Shown piece by piece: positions 10,167 to 16,765 of a DNA stretch of 64,000 bases. How positions within the stretch are numbered: position 1 is the first letter of the stretch; each line of letters starts with the position of its first letter. The translations under genes were made by a program, and so were the position numbers. The DNA is from Janthinobacterium psychrotolerans (GTDB lineage Bacteria > Pseudomonadota > Gammaproteobacteria > Burkholderiales > Burkholderiaceae_D). The notes beneath the pieces were generated by a model that was not told the DNA's origin, ran no database searches, and saw only the letters and a program-made list of their open reading frames with translations. The stretch covers positions 310,001-374,000 of the forward strand of contig NZ_LOCQ01000061.1 in assembly GCF_001677885.1 (NCBI RefSeq), read 5' to 3'.

Positions 10167-11981
10167 TCATTGAGGGCGGCCGTTTTCGCCTTCCGCAGCG
10201 GCAAACGCCGCGGCATCGCTCTCGAACATGTCTTCCAGTTCCTCGCGCGCCTTGCGCGTGAGGGACATGACTTTCTGCTGGTCCTGGAAATGCGGCGCCA
10301 CGTCAAGCAGGGTTTTCAGGTTGTGCGTGCGGAAGATGGCGGCCGCGCGTTCGGCCCGCTCGGCGCTGTAGCCGGCCTGGCGCAGGGTCTGCTCGCCCAG
10401 CAGCAGCGCGGCGGCAAAGGTCTCGCGCTCGATCAGGGTCACGCCGCGGTTCATCAGTTCATAGTAATGCGTGACGTTGCGCGCGCGCGCCAGGATGGTC
10501 AGGTGCGGCAGGCGCAGGCGCACGGCGTCGACCAGCGCCAGGCTGTCGTCGACATCGTCGATGGCGATCACCAGCGCTTTCGCCTTTTCGATGCCGGCCG
10601 CCACCAGCAGGTCGACCCGCGTGGCGTCGCCATAAAACACCTTGAAGCCAAACTTGCGCAGCAAGTCGATCTGGTCCGGGTCGTGGTCGAGCACCGTCAC
10701 GCCGATCTTGTTGGCGGCCAGCAGGCGGCCGATGATCTGGCCGAAGCGGCCGAAGCCGGCGATCATGATGGGGTTGTCCTGCGCTTGCATGGTGTCGTCG
10801 GGCCGGCGCTTCTTGTCGCTGCGCAGGCGCGGCGCCACCAGCTTGTCGTGCGCCAGCAGCAGCAAGGGCGTGGCCACCATCGACACCGTCACCACCACCA
10901 CCAGCACGGCGCTGGTTTCGGGCGTGAAGACGTGGACGGCCAGCGCGGCGGCGAACACCACGAAGGCGAATTCGCCGCCCTGCGACAGCAGCAGCGCAAA
11001 GAACAGCTGCTGGCCGCGTGGAATATCGAACAGCTTGGACAGGCCATACAGCAACGCGATCTTGATGGCCAGCAGGCCGGCCACCAGCGCCAGGATCAGC
11101 AGCGGCTGGGCGCGCAGCACGCCGAAGTCGACCGACATGCCCACGGCGATAAAGAACAGGCCCAGCAACAGCCCCTTGAATGGTTCCAGGTCGCTGATCA
11201 GTTCCTGGCGGTATTCCGAGTCGGCCAGCAGCACGCCGGCGACAAAGGTGCCGAGCGCCATCGACAGGCCCACCGATTCCATCAGCACGCAGATGGCGAT
11301 CACCAGCATCAGCGCAAAGGCGGTGAAAATTTCGCGCAATTCCGTCCTGGCGATAAAGCGCAGGATCGGATTGACGAGGAAACGCCCGGCCACTACCAGG
11401 GCCGCCAGCACGGCCACCAGTTTCAAGACCCGCAGCCAGCCCGGCGCATCGCTATGCGTGGCCAGGCCGCCCAGCAGCGGCACCAGCGCGATCATCGGGA
11501 TGGCGGCGATATCCTGGAACAGCAGAATGGAAAAACCGGCCGAGCCGGCCGGCGTCGACATCAGCTTGCGCTCGCCCAGAGTGGCGAGCACGATGGCGGT
11601 CGACGACAGCGACAAGCCCAGGGCACCCACCAGCGCCGTGCGCCAGTCGACGCCCAAGGCCATGGCGCCGGCGCACAGGCCGGCGCTGACCAGCGCCACT
11701 TGCGCGCCGCCCCAGCCGAAGATGGGCCGGCGCAGCAGCCAGAGCCGCTTCGGTTCCAGTTCCAGGCCGATCAGGAACATCAGCAGCACCACGCCGAACT
11801 CGGAAAAGCTGAGGATCACGTCGACGTTGTTGATCAGGCCCAGGCCAAACGGCCCGATGATGACGCCGGCGACCAGGTAGCCCAGCACGGCGCCCATGCC
11901 CAGGCGTTTGGCCAGCGGCACCATGACGATGGCGGCGACCAGGTAAAACAGGATATTGAGTAGAAAACTGTGGTGTTCCAT
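10167..11981 (-). CDS. CPA2 cation:proton antiporter with RCK/TrkA-N domain (KefB/KefC-like)
   Basis: 604 residues from the ATG at 11981 (an upstream in-frame start would add 11 residues). About 12 membrane segments of the Na+/H+ exchanger fold fill residues 1-385. A cytoplasmic TrkA-N nucleotide-binding domain follows from about 400, with GFGRFG as the Rossmann glycine motif and LDHDPDQID at the end of strand 2. Family members export K+ or other monovalent cations, some gated by glutathione conjugates. No KefF/KefG ancillary gene is adjacent, so gating is unknown. Confidence 0.9.
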   Translation of the reverse strand: MEHHSFLLNILFYLVAAIVMVPLAKRLGMGAVLGYLVAGVIIGPFGLGLINNVDVILSFSEFGVVLLMFLIGLELEPKRLWLLRRPIFGWGGAQVALVSAGLCAGAMALGVDWRTALVGALGLSLSSTAIVLATLGERKLMSTPAGSAGFSILLFQDIAAIPMIALVPLLGGLATHSDAPGWLRVLKLVAVLAALVVAGRFLVNPILRFIARTELREIFTAFALMLVIAICVLMESVGLSMALGTFVAGVLLADSEYRQELISDLEPFKGLLLGLFFIAVGMSVDFGVLRAQPLLILALVAGLLAIKIALLYGLSKLFDIPRGQQLFFALLLSQGGEFAFVVFAAALAVHVFTPETSAVLVVVVTVSMVATPLLLLAHDKLVAPRLRSDKKRRPDDTMQAQDNPIMIAGFGRFGQIIGRLLAANKIGVTVLDHDPDQIDLLRKFGFKVFYGDATRVDLLVAAGIEKAKALVIAIDDVDDSLALVDAVRLRLPHLTILARARNVTHYYELMNRGVTLIERETFAAALLLGEQTLRQAGYSAERAERAAAIFRTHNLKTLLDVAPHFQDQQKVMSLTRKAREELEDMFESDAAAFAAAEGENGRPQ

Positions 11982-12065
11982 GCGAATTCCGGTAAAACGT
12001 GACTGGAATCGCAATCATGCCTGAACTTGCCTGCGGCGTGACCCAGCCGAAGGCCAGGCCCGCCG

Positions 12066-12653
12066 CTATTTTTTCGCCGCCACCCGCGCGCGCAGCGCAT
12101 CGAACATTTTCGGGATGCTGTCGCGGCTCATGCTGTCGACGATCCAGCCAAAACCCATCGGCACCGGACCTGGGTCGGTGTACACCTGGTATTTGATGGC
12201 GGTGGCGCCGGCATCCTGCGGGTCGGGCGACAGCTGCCAGTAGCCGCTGGTATCAAAGATGGTGTCCTCGATTTTCACGCCCTCCATCGGCACGAGCTTC
12301 CAGGCCAGGTTGCAGCTGGCGTCGCCGGTTTTCGGCGTCATCTTCAGGCGGTACTGCTTGACTTTCCCCATCGGCAGCTTGAGCGTGACGTCGACCAGCG
12401 AGGCGCCGCCGCCGGCGGGAGCGACCTTGATCTTGTCGACGTTGGGCATGAACTGCGGGTAGCCGGCAAAATCCTGGATCGCCGCGCAGACGGCAGCCAC
12501 GCTGGCCGGCATGCTGGTGCTGGCGGCAAAGGCCTTGCCGGGCACGCCGGGCTTGCTGACATCGACCAGGTTGACGGAGACAGCGGCGGCGGCTGTGGCG
12601 GTGAACGCGGCCAGCGGGCCACAGGCAGCCAATACGAACAGCAGGGTCTTCAT
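12066..12653 (-). CDS. Secreted START/SRPBCC-like protein
   Basis: 195 residues with an N-terminal signal peptide (MKTLLFVLAACGPLAAFTAT, cleavage near 23). The rest resembles a START/polyketide-cyclase fold: FAASTSMPASVAAVCAAIQD, FAGYPQFMPNV and a C-terminal helix. Such domains bind lipids or other hydrophobic ligands in a closed cavity; the ligand is unknown. The ATG overlaps the phosphatase stop by 4 bp. It is the last gene of the four-gene GT28 operon. Confidence 0.75.
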   Translation of the reverse strand: MKTLLFVLAACGPLAAFTATAAAAVSVNLVDVSKPGVPGKAFAASTSMPASVAAVCAAIQDFAGYPQFMPNVDKIKVAPAGGGASLVDVTLKLPMGKVKQYRLKMTPKTGDASCNLAWKLVPMEGVKIEDTIFDTSGYWQLSPDPQDAGATAIKYQVYTDPGPVPMGFGWIVDSMSRDSIPKMFDALRARVAAKK

Positions 12654-13249
12654 GGTTTTTCCTGGTCGATCTGCGCGCGGATCGCTTCCACGTCGACGCG
12701 CTTGAGGTATTTTTCGATATTTCTCCACACCGCGTGGTAGCCGTAGCCGCCGTTCTTCAGCTCGTCGATGGCCTTTTCGCGCGGCCAGCCCTGGTACAGC
12801 ATGCGGTACATGGCCGTCATCATGCCGGTACGGTCGGCGCCGTGCAGGCAGTGCAGCAGCACCGGGCCTTGTTCTTCGGCGGCGCGGATGCTGCGCATCG
12901 CTTCGATCACATGGCGGTCGCGAATCGCCCAGGTATTGATGGGGATGCGCACGGTGCGGATGCCGCTGTCCTTCAGCACTTCGGTATCCGAATGAAACGA
13001 GCGCAGGCTGATCACGGTTTTCACGCCCAGCGACTGCAGCTGCGCCACATCGGCGCGATCGAGCATGGCGCTGCGGTACAGCACCGGCGTGACCTGGTGC
13101 AGGTTCGACACATGCGGCATCGGCGTGGCCCAGTCGGGATGGCGCTCGGGCTTGGCGGAAGAGCCAGGAGCCTGGCTGTTCGCCGGCGCCATCATCAGGC
13201 CGAACGACAGCGCCAGCAAGGCGGCGGAAATGAAGCGGATGGAGCTCAT
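12650..13249 (-). CDS. Exported dual-specificity/tyrosine-type phosphatase
   Basis: 199 residues. Signal peptide or anchor at about 1-25, then a compact cysteine-phosphatase domain with the P-loop HCLHGADRTG (His133, Cys134, Arg140) and an upstream TWAIRDRH region that could supply the general acid. Substrates of this group range from phosphoproteins to phospholipids and phosphoinositides. Its place between a lipid-type glycosyltransferase operon partner and a START-like protein suggests a lipid or glycolipid phosphate, which is inference. It overlaps both neighbours by 4 bp. Confidence 0.82.
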   Translation of the reverse strand: MSSIRFISAALLALSFGLMMAPANSQAPGSSAKPERHPDWATPMPHVSNLHQVTPVLYRSAMLDRADVAQLQSLGVKTVISLRSFHSDTEVLKDSGIRTVRIPINTWAIRDRHVIEAMRSIRAAEEQGPVLLHCLHGADRTGMMTAMYRMLYQGWPREKAIDELKNGGYGYHAVWRNIEKYLKRVDVEAIRAQIDQEKP

Positions 13250-13728
13250 GATTTTCTCCGGTAAGAAAAGTACAGCAGCGCGCTGGCCGCCAGCAGCGAG
13301 ACCCAGTAATCGGTCGGTGCAAACAGCATCCAGTGCTTGTGCCAGGCGATGTGGGCCGGGCTGAAATGCGCCACGCCATAGGCGGGATTCATCACGAACC
13401 ACAGATAGTCCTCGATTACCCAGAACAGCATGATGCAGCCGATGGCGCGCGCTTCCAGGCGCCACGACCACTGCCCCAGAAACAGCAGCGGAAAATGAAA
13501 GAACAGCGCAACAAACGGAAACACCCAGGCATGGTAGCCGGTCATGGGGCGGCCGCCCCAGAAGATATCGAGCAGCCAGTGGTGTTCGATGCGCCAGGTG
13601 GGCAGGTTGGCGGCCCAGCCGGCCGCGCCTTCGATCTGGATTTCCACCTGTGCGAAAAACAGGCCCAGCAAGGCGACCCAGGCCAGGGTCGCGGCGATCT
13701 GCCACGGTTTGACGGTACTGCCCGTCAT
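13246..13728 (-). CDS. Uncharacterised four-helix membrane protein
   Basis: 160 residues rich in Trp, His and Phe, with about four hydrophobic segments and a basic C-terminus (SYRRKS). Conserved-looking polar clusters are GRPMTGYHAW in the first loop and HIAWHKHWM near the third-fourth helix. I recognise no family. It overlaps the GT28 gene and the phosphatase gene by 4 bp each, so it is co-translated with them and is probably a membrane partner in the same pathway. Confidence 0.75.
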   Translation of the reverse strand: MTGSTVKPWQIAATLAWVALLGLFFAQVEIQIEGAAGWAANLPTWRIEHHWLLDIFWGGRPMTGYHAWVFPFVALFFHFPLLFLGQWSWRLEARAIGCIMLFWVIEDYLWFVMNPAYGVAHFSPAHIAWHKHWMLFAPTDYWVSLLAASALLYFSYRRKS

Positions 13729-14891
13729 GCCTGCGCCTGCGGCACTGTGGCCAGCACTTTGGCCAGCACCTCCAGCGCGGCGCGCGGGCGGCCCAGCGCC
13801 AGCGCCCGTTCACGCATCGCCTGCAACTGTTCCGGGTGATCGAGCAGATGGCGCACGCGGTATTCCAGGCTGGCGCCGTCGAGCGCCTTCAGGGCCACGC
13901 CCTGTTCCAGCAGGAAGTCGGCATTGCGCTCTTCCTGGCCGGGAATCGGCGAATTGACGATCATCGGCAAGCCGAGCGCCAGGCACTCGGAGGTGGTCAG
14001 GCCGCCCGGCTTGGTGATGACCAGGTCGGCGCAGGCCATCAGCCGTTCGACTTCGCTGGTAAAACCCTGCGCCAGCAAACGGCCCGGATATTGCGCGGCC
14101 AGCGCCGTCAGTTTCGCCAGCGCGGCCGCGTTTTTGCCGGCCAGCACGATCAGCTGGAAGTCGCCTTCGAGAAGGAGCAGGCCTGCGGCGATGGTGTCGA
14201 GGCTGCCCAGGCCGGCGCCGCCGCCCATCAGCAAAATGGTCTTGCGCTGCGGGTCCAGCCCGAACGCCTGCGCGCACTGCATGCGCTTCGGTGCCTGCGC
14301 AAAGGCCGGCATGATGGGAATGCCCGTCACGTGGATGCGCTCAAAGGCGATGCCTTCGTGGCGCATGCGGAACGCCACTTCATCGGTGGCGGCAAAATAG
14401 CCCTGCATATGGTCGAGCACCCACATGCGGTGCAGGTCGAAGTCCGTCACCTGCACCCACACGGGGCAGTCCAGCTGGTGATCGCGCAGCGCGCGCGACA
14501 GCAGTTCGGCCGGCAGGAAATGCGTGCAGACGATGGCGTCGGGCGCAAACGCGGCGATCTGCGCCATCAGCGCGCGCGTGTTGAGGCGCTCGATGGCGCG
14601 GCGCACGCGCTGCATCGAGCTGTCTTTCGGCGCATCGTGCGTGGCGTGGTACAGATAGCCCCACAGCGCTGGCGCCTTGTTGACCAGCTTGATGTAAAAG
14701 TCGGTGTACAGCTTGCGAAACGCGGGCGTGACGAAATCCATCACGTCGATATGGCGCGCGGTGGCCAGCGGGCCGGTGCCGTCCGCTCCATCATGCCCCG
14801 CATACGCCTCGATCGCCTGCGCGGCGCGCAAATGGCCGGCGCCGGCCGAGACGCTGAGAATCAGGATTTTTTTGGGTGGGTGCTGCGGCAT
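13725..14891 (-). CDS. GT28-type glycosyltransferase, MGDG synthase/UgtP-like
   Basis: 388 residues. The N-terminal lobe has SVSAGAGHLRAAQAIEAY (SAGAGH 15-20), the signature of monogalactosyl/glucosyl-diacylglycerol synthases. The C-terminal lobe has MGGGAGLGS and the nucleotide-sugar motif KPGGLTTSECLALGLP. Relatives add hexose from a UDP-sugar to diacylglycerol at the inner membrane. It is first of four genes joined by 4-bp overlaps, followed by a membrane protein, a phosphatase and a START-like protein, so a glycolipid pathway is plausible. The true acceptor is not known. Confidence 0.85.
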   Translation of the reverse strand: MPQHPPKKILILSVSAGAGHLRAAQAIEAYAGHDGADGTGPLATARHIDVMDFVTPAFRKLYTDFYIKLVNKAPALWGYLYHATHDAPKDSSMQRVRRAIERLNTRALMAQIAAFAPDAIVCTHFLPAELLSRALRDHQLDCPVWVQVTDFDLHRMWVLDHMQGYFAATDEVAFRMRHEGIAFERIHVTGIPIMPAFAQAPKRMQCAQAFGLDPQRKTILLMGGGAGLGSLDTIAAGLLLLEGDFQLIVLAGKNAAALAKLTALAAQYPGRLLAQGFTSEVERLMACADLVITKPGGLTTSECLALGLPMIVNSPIPGQEERNADFLLEQGVALKALDGASLEYRVRHLLDHPEQLQAMRERALALGRPRAALEVLAKVLATVPQAQA

Positions 14892-14989
14892 GTGCGTGCG
14901 CTCCAGGTAAGCCTTATCGGGAAAGCAAGCACAATAGCATCAACTGCCGCGCGCACATTACATCTTCGCAAGCGACCCGCAATTTGCCC

Positions 14990-16765
14990 TTATTTGACTG
15001 CCGGCGCCACGTCGGTGCGCAGTACCGGATACAGATTCAGGCGCTCGTCCCACGAAGCATGGCGGCGCGCGAAAAACGCCAGCCGCGCTTTCGGATTGCC
15101 GGCAAAGGCAGGATCGTCGGCCAGCTTCTGGCGGAACTGGGCCGCCAGCGCCGGGTCCGCCGCCAGCTGCGCGCGCGCCACGTCTTCGGCCACATAATCT
15201 TCCATGTATTCCTTGGCCTCGTAGGCTGTGTTGAAACTGCCCCAGGCCTGCAGCGAATCGGGCGCGCGTGGCTCCAGCAGCGCCAGCACCAGGCGCGCCT
15301 TGGGCTGGTTGACCGGCACATACAGGGCGCCGGCGCCTATCGTACGCCGCTCGGCTTGCCATTCGCCCGTCACCTGCGCCGTCTGGCGGCCTTCGAACGA
15401 TTGCGCGCCGAATGTCACGCCGCTGGCGCGAAAGGTCTCGACCATCTGCTTGTCCAGCTCTGTGCGCAGCACCTGATAGCGCACGCCGTGCTGGCGCAGT
15501 TTTTCCGCCACCATGGCGGCGCGCGCGGCCGGTACCAGGTAGCCGGCCTTCGGCGCCGTGACCTGCAGGTCGGGCACGATCTCGTCGCGCAGCGGCACCG
15601 TCCACAATTGCGGCGTGGTCTCGTCGTAGCGCGTCATCAGGGCGCCTGAAATCCCGGATGGCGTGCGCGTATAGGCGTAGCCGCGAAAGTCGATCATGCG
15701 GGTTTTGTCGGTGGTTTTATAACTGAGCGGCACGCTGGTGCCGGCCAGCTGCTGCGCGCGCGCGTCCGCCGCCAGGGCCGTGCCGCGCCAAACGGCGCCG
15801 TGCCGCGCCACGTGTTCCAGCAGCGAGACGATGGTGTTGCGCGTGAGGCGCACACGGGTCGGGTAGTCCTTCCACGAATGGGTTTCCACCAGCACGCCGA
15901 AGCGGTTGCGCAGCTGGAAGTAGCCGTGCGAAAAGCGCGGGTTCGGTGCGCCGTCGACAAAGCCCGACTGCGGATTGTCTTCCTCGGCAAACGAGATATA
16001 GAACGGCTTCGGATCGGAACCCTGTTTCGCCAGGTCGGCCAGCACGCCGTCACGCAAGGCAGTGCCGGCCTGGCGCAGGTCCATGTCGCCCGTATGCACG
16101 GGTTCGACCTGGATCGAGATATCGGGTTCGAACTGGGCGCCGTCGGTCACATGCAGGTCGACATAGGCCAATGGGTCCCAGGCGTTGAGCAGCGCCAGCA
16201 TCTGCTGCATTTCGGGCGCGTCGGCCTTCATGTAATCGCGGTTCAGGTTGAAATTTTGCGCCGTGCTGCGCCAGCCCATTTCCACCGGGCCGCGCTGGTT
16301 GGGACGGTTCCACTGGCCGAAGCGCTCGTGGCCGTCAACGTTAAACACCGGCACGAACAGCAGCACCTGCTTGTCGAGCGCGCCGGGCGCCGCCTTGCCG
16401 TCCAACACTTCGCGCAGCGCCAGGAAGCCCGCATCCTTGCCATCGATCTCGCCGGCATGGATGCCGCCCTGCACCAGCAGCACCGGCAGCTTGCGCCGCG
16501 CCGCTTCCTGCGCGCTCAAGGCGCCCGTGTTCGACACCGCCAGCGCCAGCATCGGCCGGTTTTCAGGCGTGCGGCCAAATTCAAAGCAGCGCACCTGCTG
16601 CGGATAGCGGGCCTGGAACTGCCGGCACAGCGTTTCCACCTCGGCATAGCGGCCCGTGTGCAAAAAGCCCGAGCGTTCGGCCACCGTGGCCAAGGACGTG
16701 GCGGCTTGCGCAGGCAGGGCAAAGGTGGACAGCAAGGCGGCGGACAGCAGGGCGTGGCGTAGCAT
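14990..16765 (-). CDS. M14-family zinc carboxypeptidase, exported
   Basis: 591 residues from the ATG at 16765, which has GGAG 8 nt upstream. A signal peptide with an ALPAQA-A cleavage site (about 22) precedes the catalytic domain. The zinc ligands are visible as His103 and Glu106 (HAGEIDGKD) and His205 (DLHVTDG). NLNRD at 173-177 is the substrate carboxylate site. The C-terminal 250 residues are extra to the minimal M14 domain. It probably acts in the periplasm on peptides or peptidoglycan fragments; the substrate is unknown. Confidence 0.9.
   Translation of the reverse strand: MLRHALLSAALLSTFALPAQAATSLATVAERSGFLHTGRYAEVETLCRQFQARYPQQVRCFEFGRTPENRPMLALAVSNTGALSAQEAARRKLPVLLVQGGIHAGEIDGKDAGFLALREVLDGKAAPGALDKQVLLFVPVFNVDGHERFGQWNRPNQRGPVEMGWRSTAQNFNLNRDYMKADAPEMQQMLALLNAWDPLAYVDLHVTDGAQFEPDISIQVEPVHTGDMDLRQAGTALRDGVLADLAKQGSDPKPFYISFAEEDNPQSGFVDGAPNPRFSHGYFQLRNRFGVLVETHSWKDYPTRVRLTRNTIVSLLEHVARHGAVWRGTALAADARAQQLAGTSVPLSYKTTDKTRMIDFRGYAYTRTPSGISGALMTRYDETTPQLWTVPLRDEIVPDLQVTAPKAGYLVPAARAAMVAEKLRQHGVRYQVLRTELDKQMVETFRASGVTFGAQSFEGRQTAQVTGEWQAERRTIGAGALYVPVNQPKARLVLALLEPRAPDSLQAWGSFNTAYEAKEYMEDYVAEDVARAQLAADPALAAQFRQKLADDPAFAGNPKARLAFFARRHASWDERLNLYPVLRTDVAPAVK

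What the first reader, a model, noticed from the sequence alone, without database searches (positions are those of the whole stretch)
12066..14891. Translationally coupled four-gene operon: GT28 glycosyltransferase, unknown membrane protein, exported phosphatase, START-like protein
All three junctions overlap by 4 bp (ATGA), implying fixed stoichiometry. A UgtP/MGDG-synthase-like transferase, a lipid-phosphatase-compatible Cys phosphatase, a four-helix membrane protein of no known family and a lipid-cavity protein together look like a dedicated envelope glycolipid synthesis, dephosphorylation and transport route that I cannot match to a named pathway. It is the best candidate here for an undescribed system.
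Basis: partly seen in the sequence, partly recalled or inferred. Interest (0 to 1): 0.6.

Follow-up and report, generated by a model that had tools for sequence, protein, structure and literature searches.

The report
Glycolipid-synthesis operon with unknown membrane partner
Four overlapping bacterial genes look like a module for making sugar-headed membrane lipids, built around a glycosyltransferase paired with a very conserved small membrane protein of unknown function that, in many related bacteria, sits under phosphate-starvation control.

Summary
The four genes are real: 12066-14891, minus strand, three ATGA overlaps. They are not one conserved unit. The core is a pair: an MGDG-synthase/UgtP-like glycosyltransferase (GT) and the 160-aa, four-helix membrane protein (MP), which has no match in Pfam, NCBIfam, PHROGs or PDB sequences. 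GT is directly upstream of MP in 70 of 80 named loci; in 116 family genomes every MP genome has the GT (52 of 52). The TpbA-like phosphatase follows in 29 of the 80, the START-fold protein in 2.

In many relatives the pair looks phosphate-regulated: Pho boxes enriched upstream (89-fold), operons with plcP-like and olsB-like genes, and phoBR, pst or ppk neighbours. GT-MP most likely makes phosphorus-free glycolipid, a GT28 counterpart of PlcP-Agt remodelling. The window's copy is a derived form: no Pho box (8/14) and no PlcP match in its genome, although an olsB-like gene there carries 12-13/14 boxes. No locus examined has the phosphatase together with a Pho box or plcP.

New part: MP. It also pairs with another glycosyltransferase family (PF13528) and occurs on a few viral contigs. 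Its reaction is unknown.

The parts
13725..14891 (-). Glycosyltransferase (GT), MGDG_synth N-domain plus GT28 C-domain, 388 aa
   Evidence: PF06925 9e-23, PF04101 6e-8; PDB 9wde processive DAG glucosyltransferase 5e-37, 4wyi Arabidopsis MGD1 5e-33; below the NCBIfam PRK13609 cut-off (205 of 500 bits)
13246..13728 (-). Membrane protein (MP), 160 aa, four helices, no known family; core partner of the GT
   Evidence: No hit in Pfam, NCBIfam, PHROGs, PDB sequences; AF2 pLDDT 85.7; 374 relatives reported in genome contigs, best 80 kept
12650..13249 (-). Exported TpbA-like PTP/DSP phosphatase, 199 aa, motif HCLHGADRTG
   Evidence: 4r0s/2m3v TpbA 8e-35, CX5R aligned; N-terminal signal peptide judged by eye
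12066..12653 (-). Exported START-fold (SRPBCC) protein, 195 aa
   Evidence: Polyketide_cyc2 4e-6; AF2 model matches 3qsz StAR-related lipid transfer protein, Foldseek 1.8e-9, TMq 0.71; signal peptide judged by eye
13725..13728 (-). ATGA overlap GT stop / MP start
   Evidence: start at -4 in 71 of 109 other GT-MP pairs
13246..13249 (-). ATGA overlap MP / phosphatase
12650..12653 (-). ATGA overlap phosphatase / START
14892..14989 (-). Leader of the operon: no Pho box and no sigma-70-like site found
   Evidence: best Pho-box match in the 300 bp upstream is 8/14, reached by 40 of 40 shuffles; promoter scan of 11700-15300 found 0

Best explanation
The operon is a lineage-specific form of a glycoglycerolipid module whose core is GT + MP. 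Inferred order of events: the GT, at the inner face of the cytoplasmic membrane, transfers a sugar from a UDP-sugar to diacylglycerol (as UgtP and MGD1 do). MP is then a dedicated small membrane enzyme or translocator that handles the new glycolipid, probably at the periplasmic face. In many relatives this appears to run under PhoB control and to make phosphorus-free lipids when phosphate is short, sometimes next to a PlcP-like enzyme (diacylglycerol from phospholipid) and an OlsB-like enzyme (ornithine lipid). In the window's genus the module lacks a Pho box and has an exported TpbA-like phosphatase and an exported START-fold lipid binder, which would act on or carry envelope lipids in the periplasm. 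Shown by computation: families, folds, adjacency, Pho boxes, partner exchange. Inferred: sugar, acceptor, MP's step, the roles of phosphatase and START.
For: GT family and solved relatives. MP genomes all have the GT: 52 of 52, against 4 of 64 MP-less genomes. GT directly upstream of MP in 70 of 80 named loci; in L110 and L118, without GT28 beside MP, a different glycosyltransferase (PF13528, 2.6e-104 and 1.1e-100) is directly upstream, and in L124 a member of the same protein cluster. PHO link: >=12/14 Pho boxes in the 200 bp upstream of GT, same strand, at 16 of 19,947 positions against 38 of the other 4.23 million, 89-fold (a few loci are duplicates or have two boxes); one perfect 14/14 (L072); boxes before whole plcP/olsB-GT-MP operons (L065, L077, L125, L131, L139). 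Neighbours: in a Lentisphaerae MAG PhoB-like, PhoR/PnpS-like (both below their NCBIfam cut-offs), GT, MP, then PstS, PstA, PstB, PhoU (over cut-offs); in Luteibacter PhoB, PhoR, Ppk (over cut-offs), GT, MP, a Ppx/GppA-family protein. OlsB-like protein in L075 (8e-48, 163 bits, below the 350-bit cut-off). MP: 35 positions >=97% conserved in 116 sequences, 32 of them in residues 25-68 and 106-141, which by the model's helix ends lie toward one membrane face. START fold.
Against: The window's operon has no Pho box and its genome no PlcP match at E<=1e-40, so phosphate control rests on relatives; of 111 distinct GTs only 18 have a box within 3.5 kb upstream and 28 a box or plcP. MP is rare in the phylum at large: 4 of 398 sampled genomes. 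MP can be absent: four genomes have the GT without MP, one in the same genus. In three planctomycete loci and L082 no glycosyltransferase was seen beside MP, L086 was left unresolved, and L082's genome gave no PF06925 match; neither did three viral contigs with MP. MP and PlcP are only weakly associated (32 of 52 against 27 of 64, p 0.04). The PlcP-like protein was not compared with a characterised PlcP. Topology is uncertain: the 113-138 loop, put outside, carries 2.0 K/R per sequence. No lipid, enzyme or expression data exist here.
Confidence: 0.6

Rival explanations
1. MP is not an enzyme but a membrane anchor or flippase that only recruits the GT or moves its product across the membrane.
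For: Small four-helix protein, pairing with GTs of two families, start-stop overlap in 71 of 109 pairs.
Against: The conserved polar residues (E29, E33, R46, R60, H66, E106, D107, N114, H130) sit toward one membrane face rather than along a path (inferred from helix ends, coordinates not inspected). UgtP/MGD1-type GTs are monotopic and need no anchor (recalled). No GT was seen beside MP in planctomycete loci and no PF06925 gene on three viral contigs with MP.
Confidence: 0.3
2. The window operon is an envelope or biofilm-signalling unit: the TpbA-like phosphatase controls a phosphoprotein (as TpbA does with TpbB) and the GT modifies a surface glycoconjugate, not a bulk lipid.
For: Closest solved relative of the phosphatase is TpbA (8e-35), periplasmic and acting on a GGDEF protein (PMC2691606, passages). 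Of 37 distinct GTs with the phosphatase, 0 show a Pho box (>=12/14, 3.5 kb upstream) or plcP nearby.
Against: The GT is far closer to diacylglycerol glycosyltransferases than to MurG; START and MP point to lipids. TpbA and this protein may share only the class of catalytic site.
Confidence: 0.15
3. MP supplies the diacylglycerol: it is a periplasmic-face phospholipid-headgroup hydrolase that replaces PlcP.
For: 20 of 52 MP genomes lack a PlcP match, including the window's; conserved carboxylate/histidine set toward one face.
Against: In 14 of the 32 genomes with both, PlcP lies within about 3 kb of MP (my count from the positions), where MP would be redundant; several lineages keep the GT without MP.
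Confidence: 0.1

Closest known systems
PlcP-Agt phosphate-limitation lipid remodelling (alphaproteobacteria, SAR11, Pseudomonas aeruginosa PA3219-PA3218/PA0842)
   Same: In relatives of the window: a putative diacylglycerol glycosyltransferase beside an LpxH-superfamily metallophosphoesterase (PlcP-like) and/or an OlsB-like gene, and Pho boxes (papers PMC4796936, PMC8528852, passages).
   Different: The GT is MGDG_synth/GT28, whereas Agt is GT4 (recalled); it comes with MP, which the passages read do not mention; the window's own copy lacks Pho box and PlcP.
UgtP / MGDG synthase (processive DAG glucosyltransferase; plant MGD1)
   Same: Two-domain architecture; phmmer 5e-37 and 5e-33.
   Different: Below the NCBIfam equivalog cut-off (205 of 500 bits); coupled to MP; sugar and processivity unknown.
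DAG glycosyltransferase near plcP in type Ia methanotrophs (Crenothrix, Methylobacter), likened to the Bacillus enzyme
   Same: Reported in PMC9239053 (passages); a Methylococcaceae MAG here has GT-MP (L145, GT 38% identical).
   Different: The passages read do not mention MP; function untested there; L145 was not shown to be the same locus.
TpbA (PA3885) periplasmic phosphatase
   Same: Sequence 8e-35, CX5R; signal peptide by eye.
   Different: Beside a GT and MP here; TpbA's partner TpbB was not sought.
StAR-related lipid transfer proteins (3qsz of Xanthomonas, StarD4)
   Same: Predicted fold, TMq 0.70-0.71.
   Different: 12-19% identity; ligand unknown.

Membership tests
PlcP-Agt lipid-remodelling pathway | PlcP phospholipase in the genome | tested here: not met
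   Window genome: no match at E<=1e-40 to the PlcP-like alignment; best single-sequence match 25%, 1.8e-8. In relatives 32 of 52 MP genomes. The query itself is PlcP-like by neighbourhood, not by comparison with a characterised PlcP.
PlcP-Agt lipid-remodelling pathway | Pho box upstream of the glycosyltransferase or its operon | tested here: not met
   Window best 8/14, while the olsB-like gene of the same genome has 12 and 13/14. In relatives 18 of 111 distinct GTs within 3.5 kb.
PlcP-Agt lipid-remodelling pathway | Agt-type glycosyltransferase | tested here: inconclusive
   Best Pfam match is MGDG_synth 9e-23, but Glycos_transf_1 also passes its cut-off (28.6 of 26.4 bits); no Agt sequence was compared.
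MGDG synthase / UgtP (GT28) | PF06925 N-domain and Glyco_tran_28_C above Pfam gathering scores | tested here: met
   81.6 bits (cut-off 25) and 33.3 bits (cut-off 22).
MGDG synthase / UgtP (GT28) | NCBIfam diglucosyl diacylglycerol synthase equivalog score | tested here: not met
   205 bits, cut-off 500: a relative, not the equivalog.
MGDG synthase / UgtP (GT28) | Sugar transfer to diacylglycerol | not testable with these tools
   Needs an assay.
TpbA-like PTP | CX5R catalytic loop aligned with TpbA | tested here: met
   HCLHGADRTG against HCKHGNNRTG.
TpbA-like PTP | Periplasmic, acts on a tyrosine-phosphorylated membrane protein | not testable with these tools
   Signal peptide seen by eye only.
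START / StAR-related lipid transfer | START fold | tested here: met
   Foldseek 1.8e-9 to 3qsz, TMq 0.71.
GtrA-type small flippase (considered for MP) | Profile match in Pfam | tested here: not met
   MP has 0 Pfam families at E<=1. A distant relation is not excluded.

The most novel reading that the evidence does not exclude
MP founds a new family of membrane enzymes devoted to bacterial glycoglycerolipids: it acts at the periplasmic face on the product of whichever glycosyltransferase it is paired with (GT28 or PF13528), is part of the phosphate-starvation response in more than one phylum, and has been taken up by phages and a giant virus to alter host membranes.
Probability: 0.3. Interest if true: 0.72.

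Novelty: new variant of a known kind. Interest (0 to 1): 0.52.

Why it matters
Replacing phospholipids by sugar lipids is how many bacteria cope with phosphate shortage. The best-described proteobacterial route uses PlcP and Agt. This looks like a second route with another type of glycosyltransferase and an extremely conserved membrane protein whose reaction is unknown. The conserved residues of MP and its exchange of glycosyltransferase partners make its role directly testable. Whether the genomes concerned also have Agt was not tested here.

Tried and rejected
A conserved four-gene block: rejected; GT-MP is the unit. A Pho box at the window operon: searched, not found. PlcP in the window genome: not found. 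An MP-GT fusion: none in 109 pairs; the ORF of L151 that spans both holds them in different frames by the positions. The gene divergent from MP in planctomycetes as a missing glycosyltransferase: pseudopilin-like (L090 by search; L083 and L084 by cluster and by eye). MP fold against the PDB: no Foldseek match at E<=0.001; VIA-align best Z 5.1 (4h54, rmsd 5.4, 97 aligned), within the range the tool calls common for helical bundles. MP in INPHARED phages: no match with the L036 protein. A promoter upstream: no sigma-70-like site.

Limits: the 80 named loci are the best 80 of 374 by similarity to one proteobacterial MAG's MP (L034) and over-represent Burkholderia; three come from one Noviherbaspirillum genome. 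Locus lengths differ, so an absent neighbour may lie beyond an end. The gene-picking script lost MP in about a third of the loci, so neighbour orders come from the rest. The phosphatase/Pho-box exclusion (p 1.5e-6) is not corrected for descent, and the phosphatase recurs in several GT clades. Ppk, Ppx, SixA and PstS and the Ppx-like gene were recognised by eye; one search tested L098 and L105 only.
Full report
WHAT IS THERE. The minus strand of 12066-14891 holds four intact genes with three ATGA overlaps. GT: MGDG_synth + GT28 C-domain, with Glycos_transf_1 also just over its cut-off; closest solved relatives a processive diacylglycerol glucosyltransferase (5e-37) and Arabidopsis MGD1 (5e-33). 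MP: 160 aa, no hit in Pfam, NCBIfam, PHROGs or PDB sequences. Phosphatase: TpbA-like, CX5R aligned. START: Polyketide_cyc2, START fold. The GT groups with Janthinobacterium sequences in the GT tree, so the window is probably from that genus.

THE CONSERVED UNIT IS THE PAIR GT-MP. Among 116 genomes of the family, MP is in 52 and the GT in 56; every MP genome has the GT (Fisher p 1e-28, not corrected for descent). The four with GT but no MP are G072, G044, G103 and G111; in G072 (same genus) the phosphatase follows the GT directly, in G111 START does. In G030 and G084 the GT and MP lie apart. The phosphatase is in 9 of 116 genomes (one weak, one partial), START in 12 of 116. In the phylum at large MP is rare: 4 of 398 sampled genomes. 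A scan of the GTDB species genomes reported 374 MP relatives and kept 80: Burkholderiales, Luteibacter/Dyella/Rhodanobacter, and MAGs labelled Planctomycetota, Lentisphaerae, Nitrospirae, Gemmatimonas and others. In these 80, the GT lies directly upstream of MP in 70, divergently in 1 (L130), downstream in 1 (L151), and no GT28 is seen in 8; the phosphatase follows in 29; START in 2, both Janthinobacterium, while a third Janthinobacterium locus (L156) lacks it.

PARTNER EXCHANGE. In two of the eight loci without GT28 (L110 Nitrospirae, L118) the gene directly upstream of MP is a glycosyltransferase of another family, PF13528, at 2.6e-104 and 1.1e-100; L124 (Lentisphaeria) has a member of the same cluster there. 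Three planctomycete loci have a pseudopilin-like gene beside MP instead, but their genomes have a PF06925 gene elsewhere; L082's genome gave no PF06925 match; L086 was not resolved. MP therefore tends to go with glycolipid-type glycosyltransferases rather than with one protein.

PHOSPHATE REGULON. Neighbours in other genera include an LpxH-superfamily metallophosphoesterase below the LpxH cut-offs (51 of 134 and 48 of 190 bits), which I read as PlcP-like, and an OlsB-like acyltransferase (8e-48; 163 bits, cut-off 350). A Lentisphaerae MAG (L105) has a PhoB-like regulator and a PnpS/PhoR-like kinase (both below cut-off), GT, MP, PstS, a permease-sized ORF that was not scanned, PstA, PstB, PhoU. 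Luteibacter (L098) has PhoB, PhoR, Ppk, GT, MP and a Ppx/GppA-family protein; four more Luteibacter loci show nearly the same cluster order, three others were lost by the script. Pho boxes (CTGTCATN4CTGTCAT; consensus as quoted in PMC8528852, passages): 14 of 109 loci (two of them one locus fetched twice) have >=12/14 within 300 bp upstream of the GT, and for these the share of 40 shuffles reaching the score was printed as 0.00. On the same strand within 200 bp the rate is 8.0e-4; that is 89-fold over the other positions of the loci. Boxes also precede whole plcP/olsB-GT-MP operons in L065, L077, L125 (three copies), L131 and L139. Most loci showed no such box: 18 of 111 distinct GTs have one within 3.5 kb. 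Across 116 genomes MP and PlcP are weakly associated: 32 of 52 against 27 of 64, p 0.04.

THE WINDOW COPY DIFFERS. Its best box is 8/14. Its genome has no PlcP match at E<=1e-40. Positive control: the olsB-like gene in the same genome (66% identical to that of L075) has boxes of 12 and 13/14, and a nearby Ppx-like gene 13 and 14/14. Over 111 distinct GTs, 37 have the phosphatase, 28 have a box or plcP, and none has both. This may reflect descent, though the phosphatase occurs in several GT clades.

HOW MP MIGHT WORK. The model (pLDDT 85.7) has long helices 8-33, 64-83, 89-113, 139-156. Of 35 positions conserved at >=97% in 116 sequences (rows with a stop, odd length or duplicates were dropped), 18 lie in 25-68 and 14 in 106-141; H78, F102 and W103 lie deeper. 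By the helix ends these 32 sit toward one face. Basic residues in the 84-93 loop (1.15 per sequence) and the C-terminus (1.41) and the acidic 29-63 loop favour N-in/C-in, so that face would be periplasmic; against this the 113-138 loop has 2.03 K/R per sequence. An E/H/D/R/N set at one interface looks more like a catalytic or binding site than a transport path, but coordinates were not inspected.

VIRUSES. Four IMG/VR contigs carry MP relatives; one has a UvsX-like recombinase next to it, and the three of them tested, possibly fragments, have no PF06925 gene. A Megaviridae protein matches the MP model (Foldseek 4.3e-5, TMq 0.70). No match in 50,697 phage records.

LITERATURE. Passages were read in PMC8528852, PMC4796936, PMC9239053, PMC2691606 and PMC11828411. 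PlcP-Agt remodelling is established; PMC9239053 notes another DAG glycosyltransferase, likened to that of Bacillus, near plcP in type Ia methanotrophs. I found no description of MP or of a GT28-MP pair in searches (open-access library only; listings).

VERDICT. A real operon and a good catch, but as a derived member of a wider GT-MP glycolipid module related in function to a known pathway. The unexplained and interesting part is MP.

Noticed in passing
L035, L036, L037, L175 (IMG/VR contigs): MP relatives (35-40% identical to the window's for L035-L037) on viral contigs; L035 has a UvsX-like recombinase next to it, and L036/L037 share a second small, apparently membrane, protein within 2 kb with no family hit. 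L175 was not inspected.
   Followed up: partly
BFVD A0A5J6VJU0: An uncharacterised Megaviridae protein has the MP fold (TMq 0.70, 24% identity).
   Followed up: no
L046, L051, L071, L072, L078: A HAD-family gene on the opposite strand downstream of MP has its own Pho box (12-14/14) near its start, so the neighbour also looks PHO-controlled (only the L046 member was scanned against Pfam).
   Followed up: partly
L177 6095-6123 and 9387-9415 (own genome, contig C11): Tandem Pho boxes before the olsB-like gene and before a Ppx-like gene in the window's own genome.
   Followed up: yes
window 43182: A 13/14 Pho-box-like site between a CobW-like GTPase gene and a DksA-like gene (both recognised by eye); meaning unknown.
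   Followed up: no
L122 (MAG labelled Desulfobulbus): Its GT nests with Azonexus/Zoogloeaceae in the tree; likely a misbinned contig.
   Followed up: no
L125, L127, L129 (Noviherbaspirillum autotrophicum): Three copies of plcP-like-GT-MP with the same GT in one assembly; real duplication or assembly artefact.
   Followed up: no
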